64,000 nucleotides of DNA from Flavobacteriaceae bacterium (GTDB taxonomy: Bacteria > Bacteroidota > Bacteroidia > Flavobacteriales > Flavobacteriaceae), in NCBI GenBank assembly GCA_018646605.1, contig JABGUL010000034.1, forward strand, positions 1 through 64,000, in the 5' to 3' direction. The position numbers and the translations under genes were made by a program. A model generated the notes under the pieces. The model saw only the letters and a program-made list of their open reading frames with translations. It was not told the origin of the DNA and did no database searches. Position 1 is the stretch's first letter. Every line of letters starts with the position of its first letter. Positions 1 to 5,580 of the stretch are shown in pieces.

Positions 1-72
1 ATCTCTTTGTTTTTAAGCAAGTTACAAATTTAATCTAAATTATAACCGATTTACTCAAATTTACTAAATCTA

Positions 73-285
73 TCACACAAACAAAGGCAAGTCTCCACTT
101 ACTTCATTCGTAGCTTGTTTCATTCTTGGTAAAGTGTATTGTAAAGCTATTTGAAGCATCTTAATACGTTGATTAGCGTCTAACTCATCTACGTCTAAAG
201 AAGCTATTAAATCGTCTATAAGTAGTTGTAGTTTTTCTTTTACTTCTGATGTTATTTTGTTGGGACTTCCTTTGGGTCTTGGCAT
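73..285 (-). CDS. Small hypothetical island protein (70 aa)
   Basis: This is a short open frame with an ATG start whose product begins MPRPKGSPNK and is otherwise acidic and helical, with no signal peptide or membrane segment. The basic PRPKGSPNK start resembles the N-termini of small phage and mobile-element DNA-associated proteins (terminase small-subunit-like or DUF5681-like), but the rest is too short to assign. It lies in the genomic island, downstream of mcrC on the same strand with a 120-base gap. A role in DNA binding is only a guess. Confidence 0.5.
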   Translation of the reverse strand: MPRPKGSPNKITSEVKEKLQLLIDDLIASLDVDELDANQRIKMLQIALQYTLPRMKQATNEVSGDLPLFV

Positions 286-405: not shown

Positions 406-1419
406 TCATTCAACCAACTCTAACATCTCCTCTTCTATTTTTTTCCAATATTGATTAAGGTTGATATTGTTAATCATTATTTTCTTTCCTGATACTATTC
501 TTTCATTTCTAATAGTTGAAGTTGTATTAGGATACAATAACATTCCCTCTATTGTCTTATCCTCTTTTAGATTATTTAAGTAGGTATAAAGTTGGTAAAT
601 GTTTCCCGACCTAAATTTTGGTTTATCTGGGTTCAAATAGTGGTATTGAAACATATTTTCATAATATTTTGTATCAATGACAATGACCTTATTTTCGTTT
701 CTAATTGTTATATCTGTTTTCATTTTAGGATATGTACTATCTTCTGTATCTGAATCCCATTTTATTAACTCACTTCTTACTTCACTTTGAGGAAATTTTG
801 ACTTATAAAAATTAAGTGCAAAGTTTTCAAATACTGCTGCCATTCCCATCTTATTTTTTACAAAATCCCCTAAATCGTATTTACCTTCTTTTTCATCAAA
901 TCCTAAATTATAATGAATGTATTTACAAATATTGGTAAGGAAATTTAAAGTACTGTTGCCTCTTACAGGTCTAACTCCGTTAATCAAGATTTTATCAATT
1001 TTCACTCTTGATACATCATTAAAAAACACAATTTTCTTTTTTATTGATTGTTTTAATTGACTACTAATTTTAGCTTTAAGGACACTATGAATTGTAGAAT
1101 ATATTAATTGATTATTTAAGTTATTTGATGAATATTCATCATAGACGCAATCAATTTTTTTAGACTTGAAACCTAATGTTTTTAGTGTGGAATTAAAATC
1201 AATTTTTTCCCTAATTGTTTTTAATGTTTCTTTTTTTTCTATGTAATCTCTGTGGAGTCCTTTCTTAACATACTTTGACAATGTTAAATCAAATATCGCT
1301 GCAAAAAATTCTGTATCGTTATCAAAATCCTTCTGGTCAATTTTTCTAATATCACTTGGTTTGTAATATTTCCAAGCGTAAGAAAGTAAGTAATAGATAT
1401 TTCTGATAGGTATTTGCAC
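406..1419 (-). CDS. mcrC: McrC-family subunit of a McrBC-type modification-dependent restriction system
   Basis: McrC is the nuclease partner of the GTPase McrB; together they cut DNA carrying modified cytosine. The 337-aa product starts MQIPIRNIYYLLSYAW, typical of McrC. It has the MGMAAVFENF block (about 191-200), followed by a PD-(D/E)xK-type nuclease core with TDIT (D236) and IDTKYY (D249, K251). The start is GTG, and its G is the last base of the TAG stop of the upstream mcrB fragment, so the two were translated as a pair. McrC appears full length, but its McrB partner is truncated (next entry), so the system is probably not functional from this locus. Confidence 0.88.
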   Translation of the reverse strand: MQIPIRNIYYLLSYAWKYYKPSDIRKIDQKDFDNDTEFFAAIFDLTLSKYVKKGLHRDYIEKKETLKTIREKIDFNSTLKTLGFKSKKIDCVYDEYSSNNLNNQLIYSTIHSVLKAKISSQLKQSIKKKIVFFNDVSRVKIDKILINGVRPVRGNSTLNFLTNICKYIHYNLGFDEKEGKYDLGDFVKNKMGMAAVFENFALNFYKSKFPQSEVRSELIKWDSDTEDSTYPKMKTDITIRNENKVIVIDTKYYENMFQYHYLNPDKPKFRSGNIYQLYTYLNNLKEDKTIEGMLLYPNTTSTIRNERIVSGKKIMINNINLNQYWKKIEEEMLELVE

Positions 1420-1961
1420 TACGATTCAATTATTGAGGTGTATTCATCTATTAGTTGTTGGTCATCAAACCAATATTCTTCTATAAGTGGTATTATTTCA
1501 TACTTGAAAACATTAGAGAGCCATTTGTTATGTTCTCCTGATTTATATGAGCAGAAATAACTGTGACCTATTTCAAAGCCATCTCCTAAAGATTCATCAG
1601 CATTAATGAAGTTGTTCAATGTTGTCATCTTATCAATTATGGATGATATAATATCTTTTGAAATCCCTTTTTTCAATAAAAATGCTTCAAACTGTTCGTT
1701 AAACTTTGGTTTCATCTTTATAAAAGCAAACCTTCGCCTTAAAGTGTAGTCAACTATTGTTAAAGACCTATCTGCTGTATTCATTGTTCCTATAATATGT
1801 AAGTTGTCAGGTATGTAGAACTGGTCTTTAGATGAATATGCGAGTTTTATTTTATTCTTTTCACCTCTTTTATCAGCTTCTATTAGCATCATTAATTCTC
1901 CGAATATCTTACTTAAATTACCTCTGTTTATTTCATCAATTATTAAAAAGTAAGGTATACT
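1419..1961 (-). pseudogene. mcrB: 5'-truncated mcrB: C-terminal half of the AAA+ GTPase domain
   Basis: Read on the minus strand, the open frame enters at about 1961, after an in-frame stop at 1962-1964. It encodes SIPYFLIIDEINRGN, then LSKIFGELMM, the McrB Walker B block. Downstream are GTMNTADRS (sensor 1) and LRRRFAF (arginine-finger region). The Walker A motif, the GTP-binding start of the domain and the whole N-terminal DNA-recognition part are missing. The first ATG (1892) lies after Walker B, so any product would be about 157 aa and unable to bind nucleotide. The break coincides with the left edge of the small-gene array, which suggests deletion or recombination at that point. Confidence 0.85.
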
Positions 1962-1971
1962 TTAAAATTTT

Positions 1972-1986
1972 AAACACAACGTGTTT
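1972..1986. repeat. 6-bp inverted repeat at the mcrB break point
   Basis: The sequence is AAACAC-AAC-GTGTTT, a perfect 6-bp inverted repeat around a 3-base centre. It lies 10 bases beyond the last codon that can be read as McrB and about 15 bases before the first copy of the repeated module. It could be part of a recombination site or a chance palindrome. Confidence 0.4.
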
Positions 1987-2000
1987 GCACTATTGAGGAT

Positions 2001-2040
2001 TCACTAAAACTTTGCGATAGAATTAGTAGATTTAGGTATA
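2001..2040 (+). repeat. Repeated intergenic module, copy 1 (promoter part only)
   Basis: This copy carries CTAAAACTTTGCGATAGAAT followed by TAGTAGATTTAG. The same block precedes all four small genes of the array (also near 2259, 2552 and 2820). The TAGATTTAG part resembles the Bacteroidetes -7 element TAnnTTTG. A TTTG lies only 12 bases upstream, shorter than the usual spacing of about 19, so promoter function is likely but not certain. This copy lacks the ACTAAAG-CC-AACTCCTT half found between genes. Confidence 0.6.
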
Positions 2041-2057
2041 ATTTAAAACTTAATAAA

Positions 2058-2240
2058 ATGAAGAAATATAGAAGAGAAAGTTTTTGGCACTTTGTTAATC
2101 CTGTTTGTCTTGCAGTAGGTATAGTTGGCTTTCTATTATACTTTGAGGTAGGTTATTTAGAAATAGGTATGACAGGGCTTGGGGCTTGGGGTGTATCAGG
2201 TGCAATGGGGTTAGAATTAGAAAAGAAGGATAAAGACTAA
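2058..2240 (+). CDS. Small membrane protein (60 aa), first gene of the repeat-linked array
   Basis: The product begins MKKYRRESFWHF and has one or two hydrophobic stretches (about 15-28 and 33-50), then ends in a charged tail EKKDKD. This is the layout of a small inner-membrane protein, and I recognise no family. The ATG follows AATAAA, the A-rich leader usual in Bacteroidetes. A copy of the repeated module lies on each side. Its presence in a genomic island beside an integrase suggests accessory cargo. Confidence 0.55.
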   Translation: MKKYRRESFWHFVNPVCLAVGIVGFLLYFEVGYLEIGMTGLGAWGVSGAMGLELEKKDKD

Positions 2241-2300
2241 AGACCCAACTCCTTACCTAAAACTTTGCGATAGAATTAGTAGATTTGAGTATATGAAAAA
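2234..2300 (+). repeat. Repeated intergenic module, copy 2 (full length)
   Basis: This is a 67-base block that runs from the stop codon of the first small gene through the start codon of the second. It aligns without gaps to 2529-2595 at 60 of 67 positions. It has a 5' part ACTAAAGACCCAACTCCTT and a 3' part with TTTGCGATAGAATTAG and TAGATTTG just before the ATG. The 3' part is probably the promoter of the following gene. The function of the 5' part is unknown. Confidence 0.75.
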
Positions 2301-2535
2301 GCTACTTTTAATTCTACTTCTAATATCTTTTACTAGCTGTGCAGTTGATGATTGTGTTGTAATTACAAGAAAAGAGAATACAGGGGTAAACTTTTTATTC
2401 TTTTTTGAAGATGATAGAAACCTTTTTGGAAATAGTGAAAATATAGTTGACGAATATGGAGCAATTCCTTCAGGTGCAGTAACAGAAGAAGTTTATAACC
2501 AATACGAAGTAGGGGATACATACTGTTTAGACTAA
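2293..2535 (+). CDS. Small lipoprotein (80 aa), paralogue of the next gene
   Basis: The N-terminus MKKLLLILLLISFTSC is a lipoprotein signal with the lipobox cysteine at position 16. The mature part is acidic and ends EEVYNQYEVGDTYCLD. That ending is nearly identical to the C-terminus of the next gene product (EEVYNQYEVGDTYCID), so the two arose by duplication together with the preceding module. I recognise no family. Two further cysteines (in DDCVV and TYCLD) could form a disulfide in the mature protein. Confidence 0.6.
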   Translation: MKKLLLILLLISFTSCAVDDCVVITRKENTGVNFLFFFEDDRNLFGNSENIVDEYGAIPSGAVTEEVYNQYEVGDTYCLD

Positions 2536-2595
2536 AGCCCTAACTCCTTCACTAAAATTTTGCGATGGAATTAGTATATTTGAGTATATGAAAAA
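2529..2595 (+). repeat. Repeated intergenic module, copy 3 (full length)
   Basis: This is the counterpart of 2234-2300, differing at 7 of 67 positions without gaps. It contains ACTAAAGCCCTAACTCCTT, then TTTGCGATGGAATTAG and the -7-like TATATTTG immediately before the start codon of the third gene. Confidence 0.75.
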
Positions 2596-2809
2596 AACAG
2601 TACTTCTAATAATAACCATTATATATTTTAATTGCGAAAAAGAAATAGATTGTATAACTATACAAGATAAATACGGGGGAAATGGTACTTTCTATTTTGA
2701 ATGGGATAGAACAATATCAGGAAATACTGATAGGCGAATCGGCACAGGTTCTGTAAGCGAAGAAGTTTATAATCAATATGAAGTTGGAGATACATACTGT
2801 ATAGATTAA
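2588..2809 (+). CDS. Small lipoprotein-like protein (73 aa), paralogue of the previous gene
   Basis: The product starts MKKTVLLIITIIYFNC, a hydrophobic signal with a cysteine at position 16 in a poor lipobox (YFNC). It continues with DCITIQDKYGG and ends GSVSEEVYNQYEVGDTYCID. The C-terminal 16 residues match the neighbouring paralogue at all but one position, while the middle has diverged and is shorter by several residues. The family is not recognised. The duplication includes the upstream 67-base module. Confidence 0.6.
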   Translation: MKKTVLLIITIIYFNCEKEIDCITIQDKYGGNGTFYFEWDRTISGNTDRRIGTGSVSEEVYNQYEVGDTYCID

Positions 2810-2873
2810 AGGTCTACCTCTAAAACTTTGCGATGGAATTAGTATATTAGTTTTCAACTTAAAAATTAATAAA
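2806..2873 (+). repeat. Repeated intergenic module, copy 4 (shortened 5' part)
   Basis: After the stop of the third gene comes TAAAGGTCTACCTCTAAAAC, a shortened form of the 5' half. TTTGCGATGGAATTAG and TATATTAG follow, then an extra leader ending AATTAATAAA before the ATG at 2874. The promoter half is well conserved with the other copies. Confidence 0.65.
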
Positions 2874-3083
2874 ATGAGTGGTAATAAAACAAGTTTCGTT
2901 GAGCAGTTAAAACAAAACCCTCTTTTTTTAACAATGTCTGGAGTGCTTATAGGAAGCGTAACAGAACAAATTGAGGGATTTACTGGGATTCCTTCTTTGG
3001 TAGTTTCAATATTTGCTGTATTGCTTACATTAATTCCGCTAGTTTGGGCACTTTCTGTTTGGCTAAAGAAAAGAAAGAAATAA
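2874..3083 (+). CDS. Small membrane protein (69 aa), last gene of the array
   Basis: The product begins MSGNKTSFVEQLKQNPLFL and has a weak hydrophobic stretch near 20-28. A clear transmembrane segment follows at about 42-63 (SLVVSIFAVLLTLIPLVWAL), ending in a basic KKRKK tail. The size and topology resemble holins and small phage membrane proteins, but I cannot assign a family. It is convergent with the recombinase gene, and a partial copy of the module's 5' half (ACTAAAGTCCTAACTCTCTAC, 3102-3122) lies between their ends. Confidence 0.55.
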   Translation: MSGNKTSFVEQLKQNPLFLTMSGVLIGSVTEQIEGFTGIPSLVVSIFAVLLTLIPLVWALSVWLKKRKK

Positions 3084-3103
3084 TTATCCTCCTACAAACC
3101 ATA

Positions 3104-4447
3104 CTAAAGTCCTAACTCTCTACTTTTATTGTCTATAGCTTTGTAGATTTCTTCTACTCTATATTCTTTTAGCACTAATTGGTGTGCTTCGTCAACTTGT
3201 TGCTTTAGTTCATCCCATTCCCAATCCTGATAGTGTGCTTTAATGGTTGGGTTAGCGTGTCCAAGTAGTTTATATCTTATATCCTGCGATATAGCTAGTT
3301 TAAGTGCGTAGGATTCAAACGTTTTACGAGCAGTTTTAAATGGTTTACCTAATAACCTTCTAATGCTCTTTTGGTAAACATCCCATACGTTTCTGTGTAC
3401 AGTAGTATTATTTATATCGTACTTAAAGAACCAACCTTCTAATTCATTAGGTGAGTAAACATCTGCACCTTTCTTAAATGGCTCTCCTGTTCGTTTATTA
3501 ATTTTTTGTGAGTGGGTTTTCTTAATAGTGTCTCTTATAGTGTACATTAAACTGAAGATAGGTTCAACATCCATTCTTATTTCCATTAATTCACCACTCT
3601 TACTTCTACGGTGTTTAATATATCTTCGTTTCTTACTATCTAATAATATAGAACCATCAGGTAAATCAGGCTCGTTTACGTTTGTTTCGTATTGGTGCAT
3701 TGTAACTAAATCAGCTTGATAGAAACCTCTTAAAGAAAACATCAATAGATAAAAGTATAGTGCCTGTATATCGTAAATGTTTTTAGCATTAGGTATAGCT
3801 TCTAAAAAATCCTCTGTCTTTACTGTTTCAACTATCTTAATACTACTACCTCTTTTTACTTTCCATTCATCACGTCTTATAAATGGTTCGCTTATTAATC
3901 CTTTCTGATATGCAAGGTTCTTTATCTTACCTAAATGAGTAAGGTATGTTCTAACTGATGTAGGAGACAATCTCTTTTTCCAACCTTGTACGCATTTATC
4001 TATAAACTCATTAGTAAGTTCTCCTAATAGTACTTTATCAGTTCCTGCTTCCTTTAATACTGCTTGTACTACTCCCTCGTAAGTTTTGTAAGAGTTTTTA
4101 TTATCGTATTTAGCTTTAAGTACTGTTTCTAAAAAACCCTGTAAGTTTTCGTTTGAAGTTGCGTTACCTCCACCCAACTTAACGCAAAGTTCATCCCAAG
4201 TATAACTACCACTCTCAAATAAACTCCAAGCCAAGTTCATATTATTAGTAATCTCTGTCAGCTTACGATTAACAATAATAGAATCTAAAGCAGTTCCTTT
4301 TACTTGATTGTTTCGTGGATTCCAATCAGAAGGTTTGACTTTTAAAGAAGTGTATTTTTTAAACTGTCTACCTTTTGAAAAGGCACGTAGAAAGATTAAA
4401 GACCTTCCATCTTTAGCAACAGGTTTGAGATATAGACCAACTCCCAT
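3104..4447 (-). CDS. Tyrosine recombinase (integrase) of the genomic island
   Basis: This site-specific recombinase is expected to insert and excise the island. The 447-aa protein has an N-terminal arm-binding region (1-90), a SAM-like core-binding region (about 100-190) and a C-terminal catalytic domain. Likely catalytic residues are R240 (SLRGFYQADL), R374 (TARKTF), H397 (LLGHANP) and the nucleophile Y406 (IKAHYQDW). The usual first histidine of the HxxR box is K371 here. The start codon lies 24 bases from two tandem 11-base repeats and about 155 bases from a tRNA 3' remnant, as expected for an integrase beside its attachment site. Its 3' end abuts the small-gene array. Confidence 0.93.
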   Translation of the reverse strand: MGVGLYLKPVAKDGRSLIFLRAFSKGRQFKKYTSLKVKPSDWNPRNNQVKGTALDSIIVNRKLTEITNNMNLAWSLFESGSYTWDELCVKLGGGNATSNENLQGFLETVLKAKYDNKNSYKTYEGVVQAVLKEAGTDKVLLGELTNEFIDKCVQGWKKRLSPTSVRTYLTHLGKIKNLAYQKGLISEPFIRRDEWKVKRGSSIKIVETVKTEDFLEAIPNAKNIYDIQALYFYLLMFSLRGFYQADLVTMHQYETNVNEPDLPDGSILLDSKKRRYIKHRRSKSGELMEIRMDVEPIFSLMYTIRDTIKKTHSQKINKRTGEPFKKGADVYSPNELEGWFFKYDINNTTVHRNVWDVYQKSIRRLLGKPFKTARKTFESYALKLAISQDIRYKLLGHANPTIKAHYQDWEWDELKQQVDEAHQLVLKEYRVEEIYKAIDNKSRELGL

Positions 4448-4494: not shown

Positions 4495-4599
4495 GATTTT
4501 ATGGTAGGTACTGTAAACTATTACCTTTGTTAAGTACTGTTATTATTGATAATTGTATTAGTAATCAATAAGTTAGGTTTTTTTATGCTTATTTACGGC

Positions 4600-4634
4600 T
4601 CAAGAGGTTGCAGGTTTGAATCCTGCCGAGGTCA
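4600..4634 (+). mobile_element. tRNA 3'-end remnant: island attachment site (att)
   Basis: The stretch has a perfect T-stem (GCAGG at 4610-4614, CCTGC at 4622-4626) around loop TTTGAAT. A 7-base acceptor strand CGAGGTC (4627-4633) and discriminator A follow. No matching 5' acceptor strand or D and anticodon arms precede it, so it is only a 3' fragment. Such fragments are left when an island integrates into a tRNA gene. The intact tRNA should lie left of this window. The tRNA identity cannot be told from the fragment. Confidence 0.8.
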
Positions 4635-4641
4635 CTAACTA

Positions 4642-4842: not shown

Positions 4843-5580
4843 TTAATTTGTCCTTGTTACAAATTCCCAAACAACCCTTTTATTCCAACCTTCGGGTAAC
4901 TCATCCAAAAGTTGAGCTAAGAGTTTTTGATCAACATTTTTTATTGCCCCCTTATTCATCAGATGATCGATCATTTGCTCCATGTTTTCATAAGCATCCC
5001 AAAAGAAGAGTGGTGCTAGATCGGAATCTTGAGGGATTATTCTAGTTGCCATTCCCCAAGAGGCCATCCCTGAATTTTTCATTTCCGATTTAAAACTAGA
5101 TGAAATTTTATCCGCAAGCTCCATAGCTGAATTTATATTTTTCGGAAAAGCCCAATTAAACAGAATATACTTTGAATTTAAATCGTTATCGTATCTTTTT
5201 TCTGTTTTGTAAACAAAACTTCCATATCGTTCAATATCTATACCACCAAATAAACCTGGAATACCATATTTTTTTTCTGTATCAAACCACGCTTCTCGAT
5301 TTACATACTTCTTTGGATTTTCATATATCGACACCCATAGATAATTGTTTTTCTCGTCTTCAACTTTGCCAATGCCAGGTACACGCTTTAATACCGCCCA
5401 GCCCTGAATTAATCCATTATCTACTGCATCTTGAGCCATTTCCTTACCGTATTTCTTAATCAGCATTTCGAAATTTTCAGCATCATCGGGGTCTACCATT
5501 GCTGGATTTAACACAAAGGTTTGTTGAGCCGAAATAACGAGTCCAAATAGTAAAAAACTAAATAAAAATATTTTTTTCAT
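4843..5580 (-). CDS. Secreted protein of unknown function (245 aa)
   Basis: The N-terminus MKKIFLFSFLLFGLVISAQQ is a signal peptide with probable cleavage after ISA. The mature protein of about 226 residues is rich in aromatic and charged residues and has two roughly similar halves. Each half contains a W/Y-rich segment and a LIKKYGKEMAQ or LADKISSSFKS type helix, which could reflect two ferredoxin-like (dabb-like) domains. I recognise no named family. It is a single gene just outside the island with its own terminator. Confidence 0.8.
   Translation of the reverse strand: MKKIFLFSFLLFGLVISAQQTFVLNPAMVDPDDAENFEMLIKKYGKEMAQDAVDNGLIQGWAVLKRVPGIGKVEDEKNNYLWVSIYENPKKYVNREAWFDTEKKYGIPGLFGGIDIERYGSFVYKTEKRYDNDLNSKYILFNWAFPKNINSAMELADKISSSFKSEMKNSGMASWGMATRIIPQDSDLAPLFFWDAYENMEQMIDHLMNKGAIKNVDQKLLAQLLDELPEGWNKRVVWEFVTRTN

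What the first reader, a model, noticed from the sequence alone, without database searches (positions are those of the whole stretch)
2001..3125. Array of tiny genes separated by a conserved intergenic module next to a tyrosine recombinase
Four small genes (60-80 aa) lie head to tail, each preceded by the same module with TTTGCGAT and a TAnnTTTG-like element. Two copies of the module (2234-2300 and 2529-2595) match at 60 of 67 positions without a gap. A partial copy of its first half is also found after the last gene, against the recombinase gene end. Module plus gene thus looks like a repeating unit. Two of the gene products are paralogous lipoproteins sharing a nearly identical C-terminus; the other two are unrelated membrane proteins. 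This could be a cassette system, with modules as recombination sites, or repeated local duplication carrying a promoter. The module could also be only a shared promoter that cargo genes recombine within. Duplication is certain; a cassette mechanism is speculation.
Basis: partly seen in the sequence, partly recalled or inferred. Interest (0 to 1): 0.62.

Follow-up and report, generated by a model that had tools for sequence, protein, structure and literature searches.

The report
Shuffled promoter-gene cassettes beside an integrase
A small mobile element in a little-known flavobacterium carries a row of tiny genes for membrane and lipoproteins, each with its own copy of the same promoter and most ending in a copy of the neighbouring integrase gene's tail; genome comparisons suggest that related bacteria swap such promoter-gene units one by one, like a home-grown gene-cassette system.

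Summary
The module has two parts. The right half is promoter-like (CTAAAACTTTGCGATnGAnTTAGTAnATTTG). The left half, unnoticed before, copies the last ~19 bp of the neighbouring tyrosine integrase gene; the "partial copy" after gene 4 is the integrase end itself. The unit is thus promoter + gene(s) + integrase-tail copy. The array lies in an integrative element at tRNA-Arg. Two congeners carry the same element with other cargo, and similar arrays lie at further loci. Two single cassettes are shared by two species at 96% DNA identity where glutamine synthetase is 76% identical, with near-chance identity outside; most other cassette comparisons do not exceed that yardstick. One block reaches another genus (90.7% against 72%). 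Crossover points scatter through the module, so I favour homology-driven exchange in shared promoters and tails over a fixed-site recombinase, which remains possible. It is not an integron: no attC-like folding. Cargo elsewhere includes a Bor-like lipoprotein, a classic phage moron. The function of the window genes is inferred only. A second repeat, 49 copies in four genomes, hints at a wider system.

The parts
1955..2003 (+). Leader of the array: GTATACTTTAAAATTTTAAACACAACGTGTTTGCACTATTGAGGATTCA, 49 bp before promoter 1
   Evidence: Its first 25 bases (up to 3 mismatches) occur in 5 of 38 genus genomes, 7 places, reversed control 0; left neighbour differs among the six loci with this leader aligned
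2004..2040 (+). Promoter copy 1 (no integrase tail before it)
   Evidence: E 4.4e-11; used to build the profile
2058..2240 (+). Gene 1, 60 aa, membrane protein by eye
   Evidence: homologue 82% aa identical in G412:C39 (L130); no family in Pfam, PHROGs or PADLOC
2238..2256 (+). Tail 1: copy of an integrase 3' end (reverse complement reads KELGL-stop); its first bases hold the TAA stop of gene 1
   Evidence: 1 of 18 bases differs from the G399 integrase end
2257..2292 (+). Promoter copy 2
   Evidence: E 7.9e-12
2293..2535 (+). Gene 2, 80 aa, lipoprotein by its N-terminus (...EEVYNQYEVGDTYCLD)
   Evidence: relatives at L048, L051, L057, L127, L130
2533..2551 (+). Tail 2, holds the stop of gene 2
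2552..2587 (+). Promoter copy 3
   Evidence: E 7.1e-11
2588..2809 (+). Gene 3, 73 aa, lipoprotein by its N-terminus, paralogue of gene 2
   Evidence: 44% aa identity to gene 2
2807..2819 (+). Tail 3, degenerate or shortened
   Evidence: not matched by the tail patterns
2820..2856 (+). Promoter copy 4
   Evidence: E 8.3e-10
2874..3083 (+). Gene 4, 69 aa, membrane protein by eye
   Evidence: relatives in L053 and L128; in L128 an integrase-like end follows it too
3104..4447 (-). Tyrosine integrase, 447 aa; its last ~19 bp (3104-3123) correspond to the tails
   Evidence: Arm-DNA-bind_5 and Phage_int_SAM_5 above cut-off; 80% aa identical to the G399 integrase
4593..4636 (+). att remnant: 3' half of tRNA-Arg(acg)
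   Evidence: 98% match to the intact tRNA-Arg in G000:C44; 95-96% to those of G399 and G397
406..1419 (-). mcrC (McrBC component)
   Evidence: PF10117 E 2e-31
1419..1960 (-). mcrB, 5' part missing; cut where the leader begins
   Evidence: AAA_5 fragment, E 1.4e-9; reading
50..86 (-). Fifth, weaker promoter copy, reading off the contig end, directly after the 70-aa gene 73-285
   Evidence: E 6.7e-5; not used to build the profile

Best explanation
The array is the cargo site of a small tRNA-Arg integrative (perhaps mobilizable) element. Cargo comes as self-contained cassettes: a shared promoter, one to three small genes, many for lipo- or membrane proteins, and usually a ~19 bp copy of the integrase gene end, at whose first bases the cargo gene stops. 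Shown by comparison: the anatomy, its recurrence with different genes in related genomes, and the sharing of some single cassettes between genomes, once across genera, at identities far above background. Inferred: exchange works by recombination in the short shared sequences (promoter on the left, integrase tail on the right), by RecA or a phage-type annealing recombinase, between co-resident elements and chromosomal copies. An illegitimate fusion of an integrase tail to a promoter start, which seems to have happened at least twice, lets cassettes line up in tandem instead of replacing one another. Also inferred: each gene is expressed on its own and the products are moron-like cell-surface traits, for example exclusion of competing phages.
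For: Same element with other cargo in G399 and G397. Promoter pattern (up to 3 mismatches) in 10 of 38 genus genomes, 26 places, reversed control 0; profile finds 32 sites at E<=1e-3 in 11 of 38, 22 of them used to build it. The two full tails of the window differ from the G399 integrase end in 1 and 3 of 18 bases (sequences). Two cassettes at 96.2% and 96.4% between G397 and G399 against 75.8% for glutamine synthetase; adjacent in G397, on two contigs in G399. Identity mostly 85-100% inside, 15-55% outside. Cross-genus block 90.7% against 72.0%. Scattered crossovers and a deviating junction in L054. Bases T23, A24, T27, T28 of the -7 element invariant in the 25 promoter copies aligned. Bor-like cargo in L054, PF06291 E 2.7e-12, with a 90% relative in L053.
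Against: No direct evidence of expression, excision or exchange. Of 16 between-genome cassette comparisons only four exceed the glutamine synthetase yardstick by 9 points or more; ten lie within about 5 points above it or below it (for example FKKKTE 91.2% against 92.7%, gene 4 G000-G403 67.2% against 84.8%). In 6 of 8 aligned tail-bearing junctions (two of the six are duplicates within G397) the tail-promoter spacing is identical, which a fixed-site recombinase would also give. In G412:C39 genes 1 and 2 stand side by side without a module between them. Tails at 3-4 mismatches are weak calls: the same pattern also gave 4-mismatch matches at six places with no visible link to an array. Not all 26 places are arrays; those in G413 and G423 look like ordinary promoters and were not studied. 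G at the third base of the -7 element (14 of 25) is said to be virtually absent in F. johnsoniae. Most loci come from draft assemblies.
Confidence: 0.63

Rival explanations
1. Site-specific cassette system: the integrase (or the resolvase beside the leader in G399) recognises the tail, an attachment site lying inside the 3' end of its own gene, and cassettes flanked by tail copies are moved as circles, like cis-mobilizable elements or dif modules.
For: A tail-like sequence follows a cargo gene in 12 of the array loci read (window, L017, L048, L050-L056, L128, L130); identity ends exactly at the tail end for the 31-aa cassette; equal spacing in 6 of 8 aligned junctions; resolvase gene near the leader in L016, L131 and (broken) L057.
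Against: Crossovers start at different places: in the leader, 18 nt left of the promoter, inside it, near the start codon, and run into the next promoter; the L054 junction lies about 10 nt further into the integrase; of the 12 loci L048-L058 and L060 only L050 (26 aa) and L053 (a distant one, 21% identity) matched the integrase; no tail after cargo in L049, L058, L060; the element's own att is the tRNA-Arg end, unlike the tail.
Confidence: 0.18
2. Mobile promoter: the module itself is a small mobile repeat that inserted in front of genes already there; the genes did not move.
For: Genes 1 and 2 are neighbours with a module in G000 and without one in G412.
Against: Some of the genes are shared at 96% between divergent genomes, and families sit in different neighbourhoods; in the best pairs identity spans promoter, gene and tail.
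Confidence: 0.08
3. Simple local tandem duplication carrying a promoter.
For: Genes 2 and 3 are paralogues preceded by near-identical modules.
Against: Genes 1 and 4 are unrelated; other genomes have other genes between the same modules.
Confidence: 0.05
4. Integron gene-cassette array with attC sites.
For: One-gene units, repeat after each gene, tyrosine recombinase next door.
Against: Eight module strands fold no better than shuffles (z from +1.2 to -1.6); the integrase has a phage-type arm-binding domain; each cassette has its own promoter and the integrase is convergent to the array.
Confidence: 0.02

Closest known systems
Phage morons (for example lambda bor)
   Same: One or few small genes with their own promoter, inserted between genes that are neighbours in relatives; one cargo family here is Bor-like. 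Definition seen in passages of PMC3029335; that bor is a classic moron is recalled.
   Different: Here in an integrative element and on chromosomal contigs, in tandem arrays sharing one promoter sequence and an integrase-derived 3' end; no relatives of gene 2, gene 4 or the Kazal-like protein found in viral contigs.
Cargo hotspot next to int in P4-like satellites
   Same: High-turnover small locus beside the integrase gene; homologous recombination is proposed as one step of exchange there too (passages of PMC9122126).
   Different: P4 hotspots swap whole anti-phage systems; no repeated promoter or integrase tail between cargo genes is mentioned in the passages seen.
dif modules of Acinetobacter plasmids
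   Same: Shuffling of small gene modules bounded by short sites within a genus (abstract of PMC13141974).
   Different: Those recombine at pdif sites (by XerC/XerD, abstracts listed); here no such site was recognised and crossovers scatter.
Integron cassette arrays (recalled)
   Same: Rows of small genes in one orientation with a repeat after each, near a tyrosine recombinase.
   Different: No attC folding, promoter in each unit, different integrase type, repeat derived from the integrase's own coding end.
Recombination at short boundary sequences in mosaic phages
   Same: Gene swapping through short shared sequences at gene borders (passages of PMC3029335).
   Different: Here the border sequences are a promoter-like core and a gene-end copy, repeated in tandem.

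Membership tests
Phage-type moron | Small gene with its own promoter | tested here: met
   By sequence only: promoter-like core ahead of most array ORFs, -7 TA..TT invariant in the 25 copies aligned; some units hold two or three genes behind one promoter
Phage-type moron | Present in one, absent in a related element at the same place | tested here: met
   Integrase-side cargo differs between G000, G399 and G397
Phage-type moron | Own terminator | tested here: inconclusive
   Modules do not fold as single strands; the terminator scan was not run
Phage-type moron | Carried by a phage | tested here: not met
   No exact module match in viral contigs, no relatives of genes 2, 4 or Kazal there, integrase not found in viral contigs or phages
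Integron cassette array | Foldable attC site after each gene | tested here: not met
   z from +1.2 to -1.6 for eight strands of six modules
Integron cassette array | IntI-type integrase | tested here: not met
   Arm-DNA-bind_5 plus Phage_int_SAM_5; that IntI lacks an arm-binding domain is recalled
dif module | 28-bp site with XerC and XerD half-sites | not tested
   No dif of this genome was located; none recognised by eye; site size recalled
Integrative element at a tRNA gene | Tyrosine integrase next to a duplicated tRNA 3' end | tested here: met
   in G399 and G397 both ends are on one contig, in G000 they are on two
Integrative mobilizable element | Relaxase or oriT | tested here: inconclusive
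   Only a NikA-like accessory protein found among ten proteins of G399's and G397's elements (PF21983, E 3.3e-6); no relaxase; oriT not sought
Cis-mobilizable element accretion | Units bounded by direct repeats of an att site used by the integrase | tested here: inconclusive
   Tails are direct repeats, but the known att is the tRNA end and crossovers scatter

The most novel reading that the evidence does not exclude
A self-made cassette system: the 3' ends of element genes (the integrase here, a second gene end for the 49-copy repeat) have been turned into cassette-end sites, so that promoter-gene-tail units are captured, lined up and traded one by one across species and genera by an element-coded recombinase, a cassette mechanism independent of attC and pdif.
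Probability: 0.17. Interest if true: 0.82.

Novelty: new variant of a known kind. Interest (0 to 1): 0.62.

Why it matters
Gene cassettes that travel one by one are known in few systems, and those I can name rely on a dedicated site. Here a flavobacterial genus appears to share a pool of small genes (17 families counted, 15 of them at two or more loci), many for lipo- or membrane proteins, as promoter-bearing units whose 3' border is usually made from the end of the integrase gene. That gives a testable case of how a cassette system can start: a cargo hotspot beside an integrase, plus an accidental fusion of a gene end to a promoter. The cargo (Bor-like and other lipoproteins) points to surface traits worth testing for phage exclusion.

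Tried and rejected
Module pattern in 397 family genomes: own genome plus one hit in another genus (G300), which proved to lie in an array. Profile in 249 family genomes (stricter filters): own genome plus two weak hits (4.9e-4, 9.6e-4; about 0.25 expected at this limit, with E-values good to a factor of about five); not read. Viral contigs for module, tail-promoter junction and second repeat, exact patterns only: nothing; integrase and three cargo proteins there: no relatives; integrase in phages: none. Genome-contig scan with the integrase: two loci, in the two congeners already known (records of UBA980 and PACB-20200310-m14). PDB search with the integrase: none. PADLOC: nothing for genes 1-4. 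attC-like folding of modules and of the second repeat: no. Tail pattern: 19 places in 11 of 38 genomes against 6 control matches; 11 of the 19 were in loci already held, of six more read three belong to the system and three are ordinary chromosomal genes, and two (L076, L078) were not read. A spacing count by script (end) misfired because the fuzzy match slid; I use the alignment instead. Literature searches for a description of such arrays: one search found no paper, the others list 8-12 papers each of 9-39 found, and none of those listed describes one by title or start of abstract; only open-access papers are held. The idea that the module is a generic promoter of the genus was dropped because the profile finds only 32 sites at E<=1e-3 in 38 genomes.
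Full report
WHAT IS THERE. The window starts at the end of contig C10 of a 1.98 Mb, 98% complete genome; named congeners are Flavobacteriaceae metagenome assemblies. From 2004 to 3103 four small genes stand head to tail, each behind a copy of one promoter-like core; with the 67-base module as query there are four matches in the own genome, all here. A profile made later adds a weaker fifth copy at 50-79 on the other strand. To the right, convergent to the array, lies a 447-aa tyrosine integrase (3104-4447), then the 3' half of a tRNA-Arg (4593-4636), whose intact gene lies on contig C44. To the left, mcrB is cut off at about 1955, where a 49-bp leader begins.

ANATOMY OF THE MODULE. The module has two parts of different origin. 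The right part, CTAAAACTTTGCGATnGAnTTAGTAnATTTG, is promoter-like: in the 25 copies I aligned from this and related genomes four bases of the Bacteroidetes -7 element (TAnnTTTG; passages of PMC2483708 and PMC6847099) are invariant, 15 have it complete, and the first ATG follows 13 nt from its start in nine. A G in its third position, in 14 of 25, is unusual for F. johnsoniae. The left part, AAAGnCCTAACTCCTTACC, is a copy of the last ~19 bp of the integrase gene read backwards: the window's two full tails differ from the integrase end of the related element in G399 in 1 and 3 of 18 bases, and still read KELGL-stop. The third tail, after gene 3, is degenerate. In the tail-bearing cassettes the stop codon of the cargo gene, most often TAA, usually lies in the first bases of the tail. 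Promoter 1 has no tail before it but the leader.

THE SAME ELEMENT ELSEWHERE. Among 120 relatives (limit E 1e-60) the integrase is found in the window's genome and two congeners, G399 (80% aa identity, intact) and G397 (broken), and both carry the same kind of element between a tRNA-Arg copy and the intact tRNA-Arg. G399 has a leader, one promoter and two small genes where the window has four cassettes. G397 has three cassettes with other genes: a 31-aa protein, a Kazal-like lipoprotein (Pfam E 0.0014, below the curated cut-off) and a 100-aa protein, with tails between them. G399's element also codes for a resolvase and a NikA-like protein. G397 holds a second copy of the element end in tandem (94.8%).

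ARRAYS BEYOND THE ELEMENT. The promoter pattern occurs in 10 of 38 genus genomes, 26 places, with no match of the reversed control. A sequence profile finds 32 sites at E<=1e-3 in 11 of 38 (my count from the list); 22 of these had been used to build it. Not every site is an array: those of G413 and G423 look like ordinary promoters and were left. In 249 genomes of the family the profile finds the own genome and two weak hits, but an array with one such module exists in G300 of another genus. Reading these loci shows recurring cargo families in changing neighbourhoods: 17 families were compared, 15 occur at two or more loci. For instance gene-2 relatives follow gene 1 (G000, G412), a 59-aa gene (G399:C60) or the array start (G425, G400), and precede gene 3, the Kazal-like gene, a 41-aa gene or a 35-aa gene. 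One family is a Bor-like lipoprotein (PF06291, E 2.7e-12; PHROG Bor-like, E 5.3e-4). Of the 12 loci L048-L058 and L060 only L050 (26 aa of the end) and L053 (a distant integrase, 21% identity) matched the integrase protein; L051 keeps 24 bp of its end. A tail-like sequence follows cargo in 12 of the array loci read; in L049, L058 and L060 I see none, and in L057 and L127 it is degenerate. Tails with 3-4 mismatches are weak on their own, because the pattern also gave 4-mismatch matches at six places unrelated to arrays.

MOVEMENT. Two cassettes that are neighbours in G397 lie on two contigs in G399 at 96.2% (158 nt) and 96.4% (277 nt) DNA identity, while glutamine synthetase, a conserved gene, is 75.8% identical between these genomes and the integrase 86.4%. 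Two more comparisons exceed the yardstick by 9 points or more (gene-2 type G399-G425 90.5% against 79.7%; 76-aa gene 89.0% against 79.7%). The other 12 of 16 between-genome comparisons do not: two are 7 points above, the rest between about 5 above and 18 below. Most cassette families are therefore shared without proof of recent transfer. A two-gene block is 90.7% identical between G397 and G300, a different genus (glutamine synthetase 72.0%). In 20-nt bins for five pairs, identity is mostly 85-100% within the unit, lower (60-85%) in the promoter of three pairs, and 15-55% outside, except where the neighbouring module or leader is itself shared.

HOW IT WORKS. The five pairs also show where the shared stretch begins: in the leader for the two-gene unit, 18 nt left of the promoter for the 31-aa unit, inside the promoter for the Kazal and FKKKTE units, near the start codon for the gene-2 type. 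On the right, identity ends at the tail end, within the tail, or in the next promoter. A recombinase with a fixed site would not scatter like this, although later mutation blurs the picture. One junction (L054) runs about 10 nt further into the integrase sequence and lacks the start of the promoter, so a gene end seems to have been fused to a promoter at least twice. On the other side, 6 of 8 aligned tail-bearing junctions have the same spacing (two of the six are near-duplicates in G397). I take one main fusion, spread by homologous exchange, as the simplest account, with RecA or a phage-type annealing protein as the likely agent (inferred). A site-specific mechanism remains possible. The case without a module between genes 1 and 2 in G412 is unexplained.

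FUNCTION. Nothing here shows what the window's four proteins do; none has a family in Pfam or PADLOC, and the only PHROG match is weak and of unknown function (gene 2, E 0.0064). Small lipo- and membrane proteins under their own promoters, with a Bor relative in the pool and mcrBC beside them, suggest traits that help the host of the element, such as blocking other phages. This is inference.

WHAT IS KNOWN. Closest are phage morons (passages of PMC3029335), cargo hotspots beside the integrase of P4-like satellites (passages of PMC9122126), and dif modules (abstract of PMC13141974). It is not an integron. Five searches of the open-access library listed no description of such arrays. I file it as a new variant of a known kind.

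A SECOND REPEAT. A different short repeat, GGCATATCnTCTTCAnTAAGTTC (up to 2 mismatches), occurs 49 times in four genomes (G000 8, G397 19, G399 4, G425 18) with no control match, often in rows on one strand between genes. In the copies read it tends to follow gene ends or terminator-like sequence and to precede the next gene's promoter region, and read backwards it too looks like a gene end (...ELNEEDMPMI-stop). Six stretches with it do not fold better than shuffles (z from +1.1 to -1.4). This hints that the tail-plus-promoter principle is wider than the integrase tail; I did not find the parent gene.

Noticed in passing
G000, G397, G399, G425 genome-wide; L018:88, L055:6650, L131:7802: Second dispersed repeat GGCATATCnTCTTCAnTAAGTTC, 49 copies in four genomes, reversed control 0, in same-strand rows between genes (for example eight copies over about 5 kb of G425:C11); reads backwards as a gene end (...EEDMPMI-stop). 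A possible larger cassette system.
   Followed up: partly
window 73-285 (-); L055, L131, L018, L060, L051, L019: The 3' end of a 70-aa gene (MPRPKG...LPLFV) recurs as fragments of about 80-100 bp between genes, often joined to the repeat above.
   Followed up: partly
window 1955-2003; L016, L049, L054, L057, L060, L131: Leader GTATACTTTAAA... has a sharp left edge next to different sequence in most loci, as if deletions or joinings stop there; in G399 and G400:C5 it neighbours a resolvase gene.
   Followed up: partly
window 1419-1960: mcrB lacks its 5' part while mcrC is open; the restriction system is probably dead.
   Followed up: no
L017 1313-2480 and 8667-9816: Tandem copies (94.8%) of the element end at tRNA-Arg in G397: accretion of elements at one site.
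   Followed up: no
L130 rc 201-650 (G412:C39): Genes 1 and 2 adjacent without a module, gene 2 frameshifted in a T-run, with an integrase-like tail after gene 2 facing an unrelated gene end.
   Followed up: partly
window 4843-5580 and L018 235-990: Similar-looking secreted proteins flank the two element ends in G000 (by eye, not compared by a tool).
   Followed up: no
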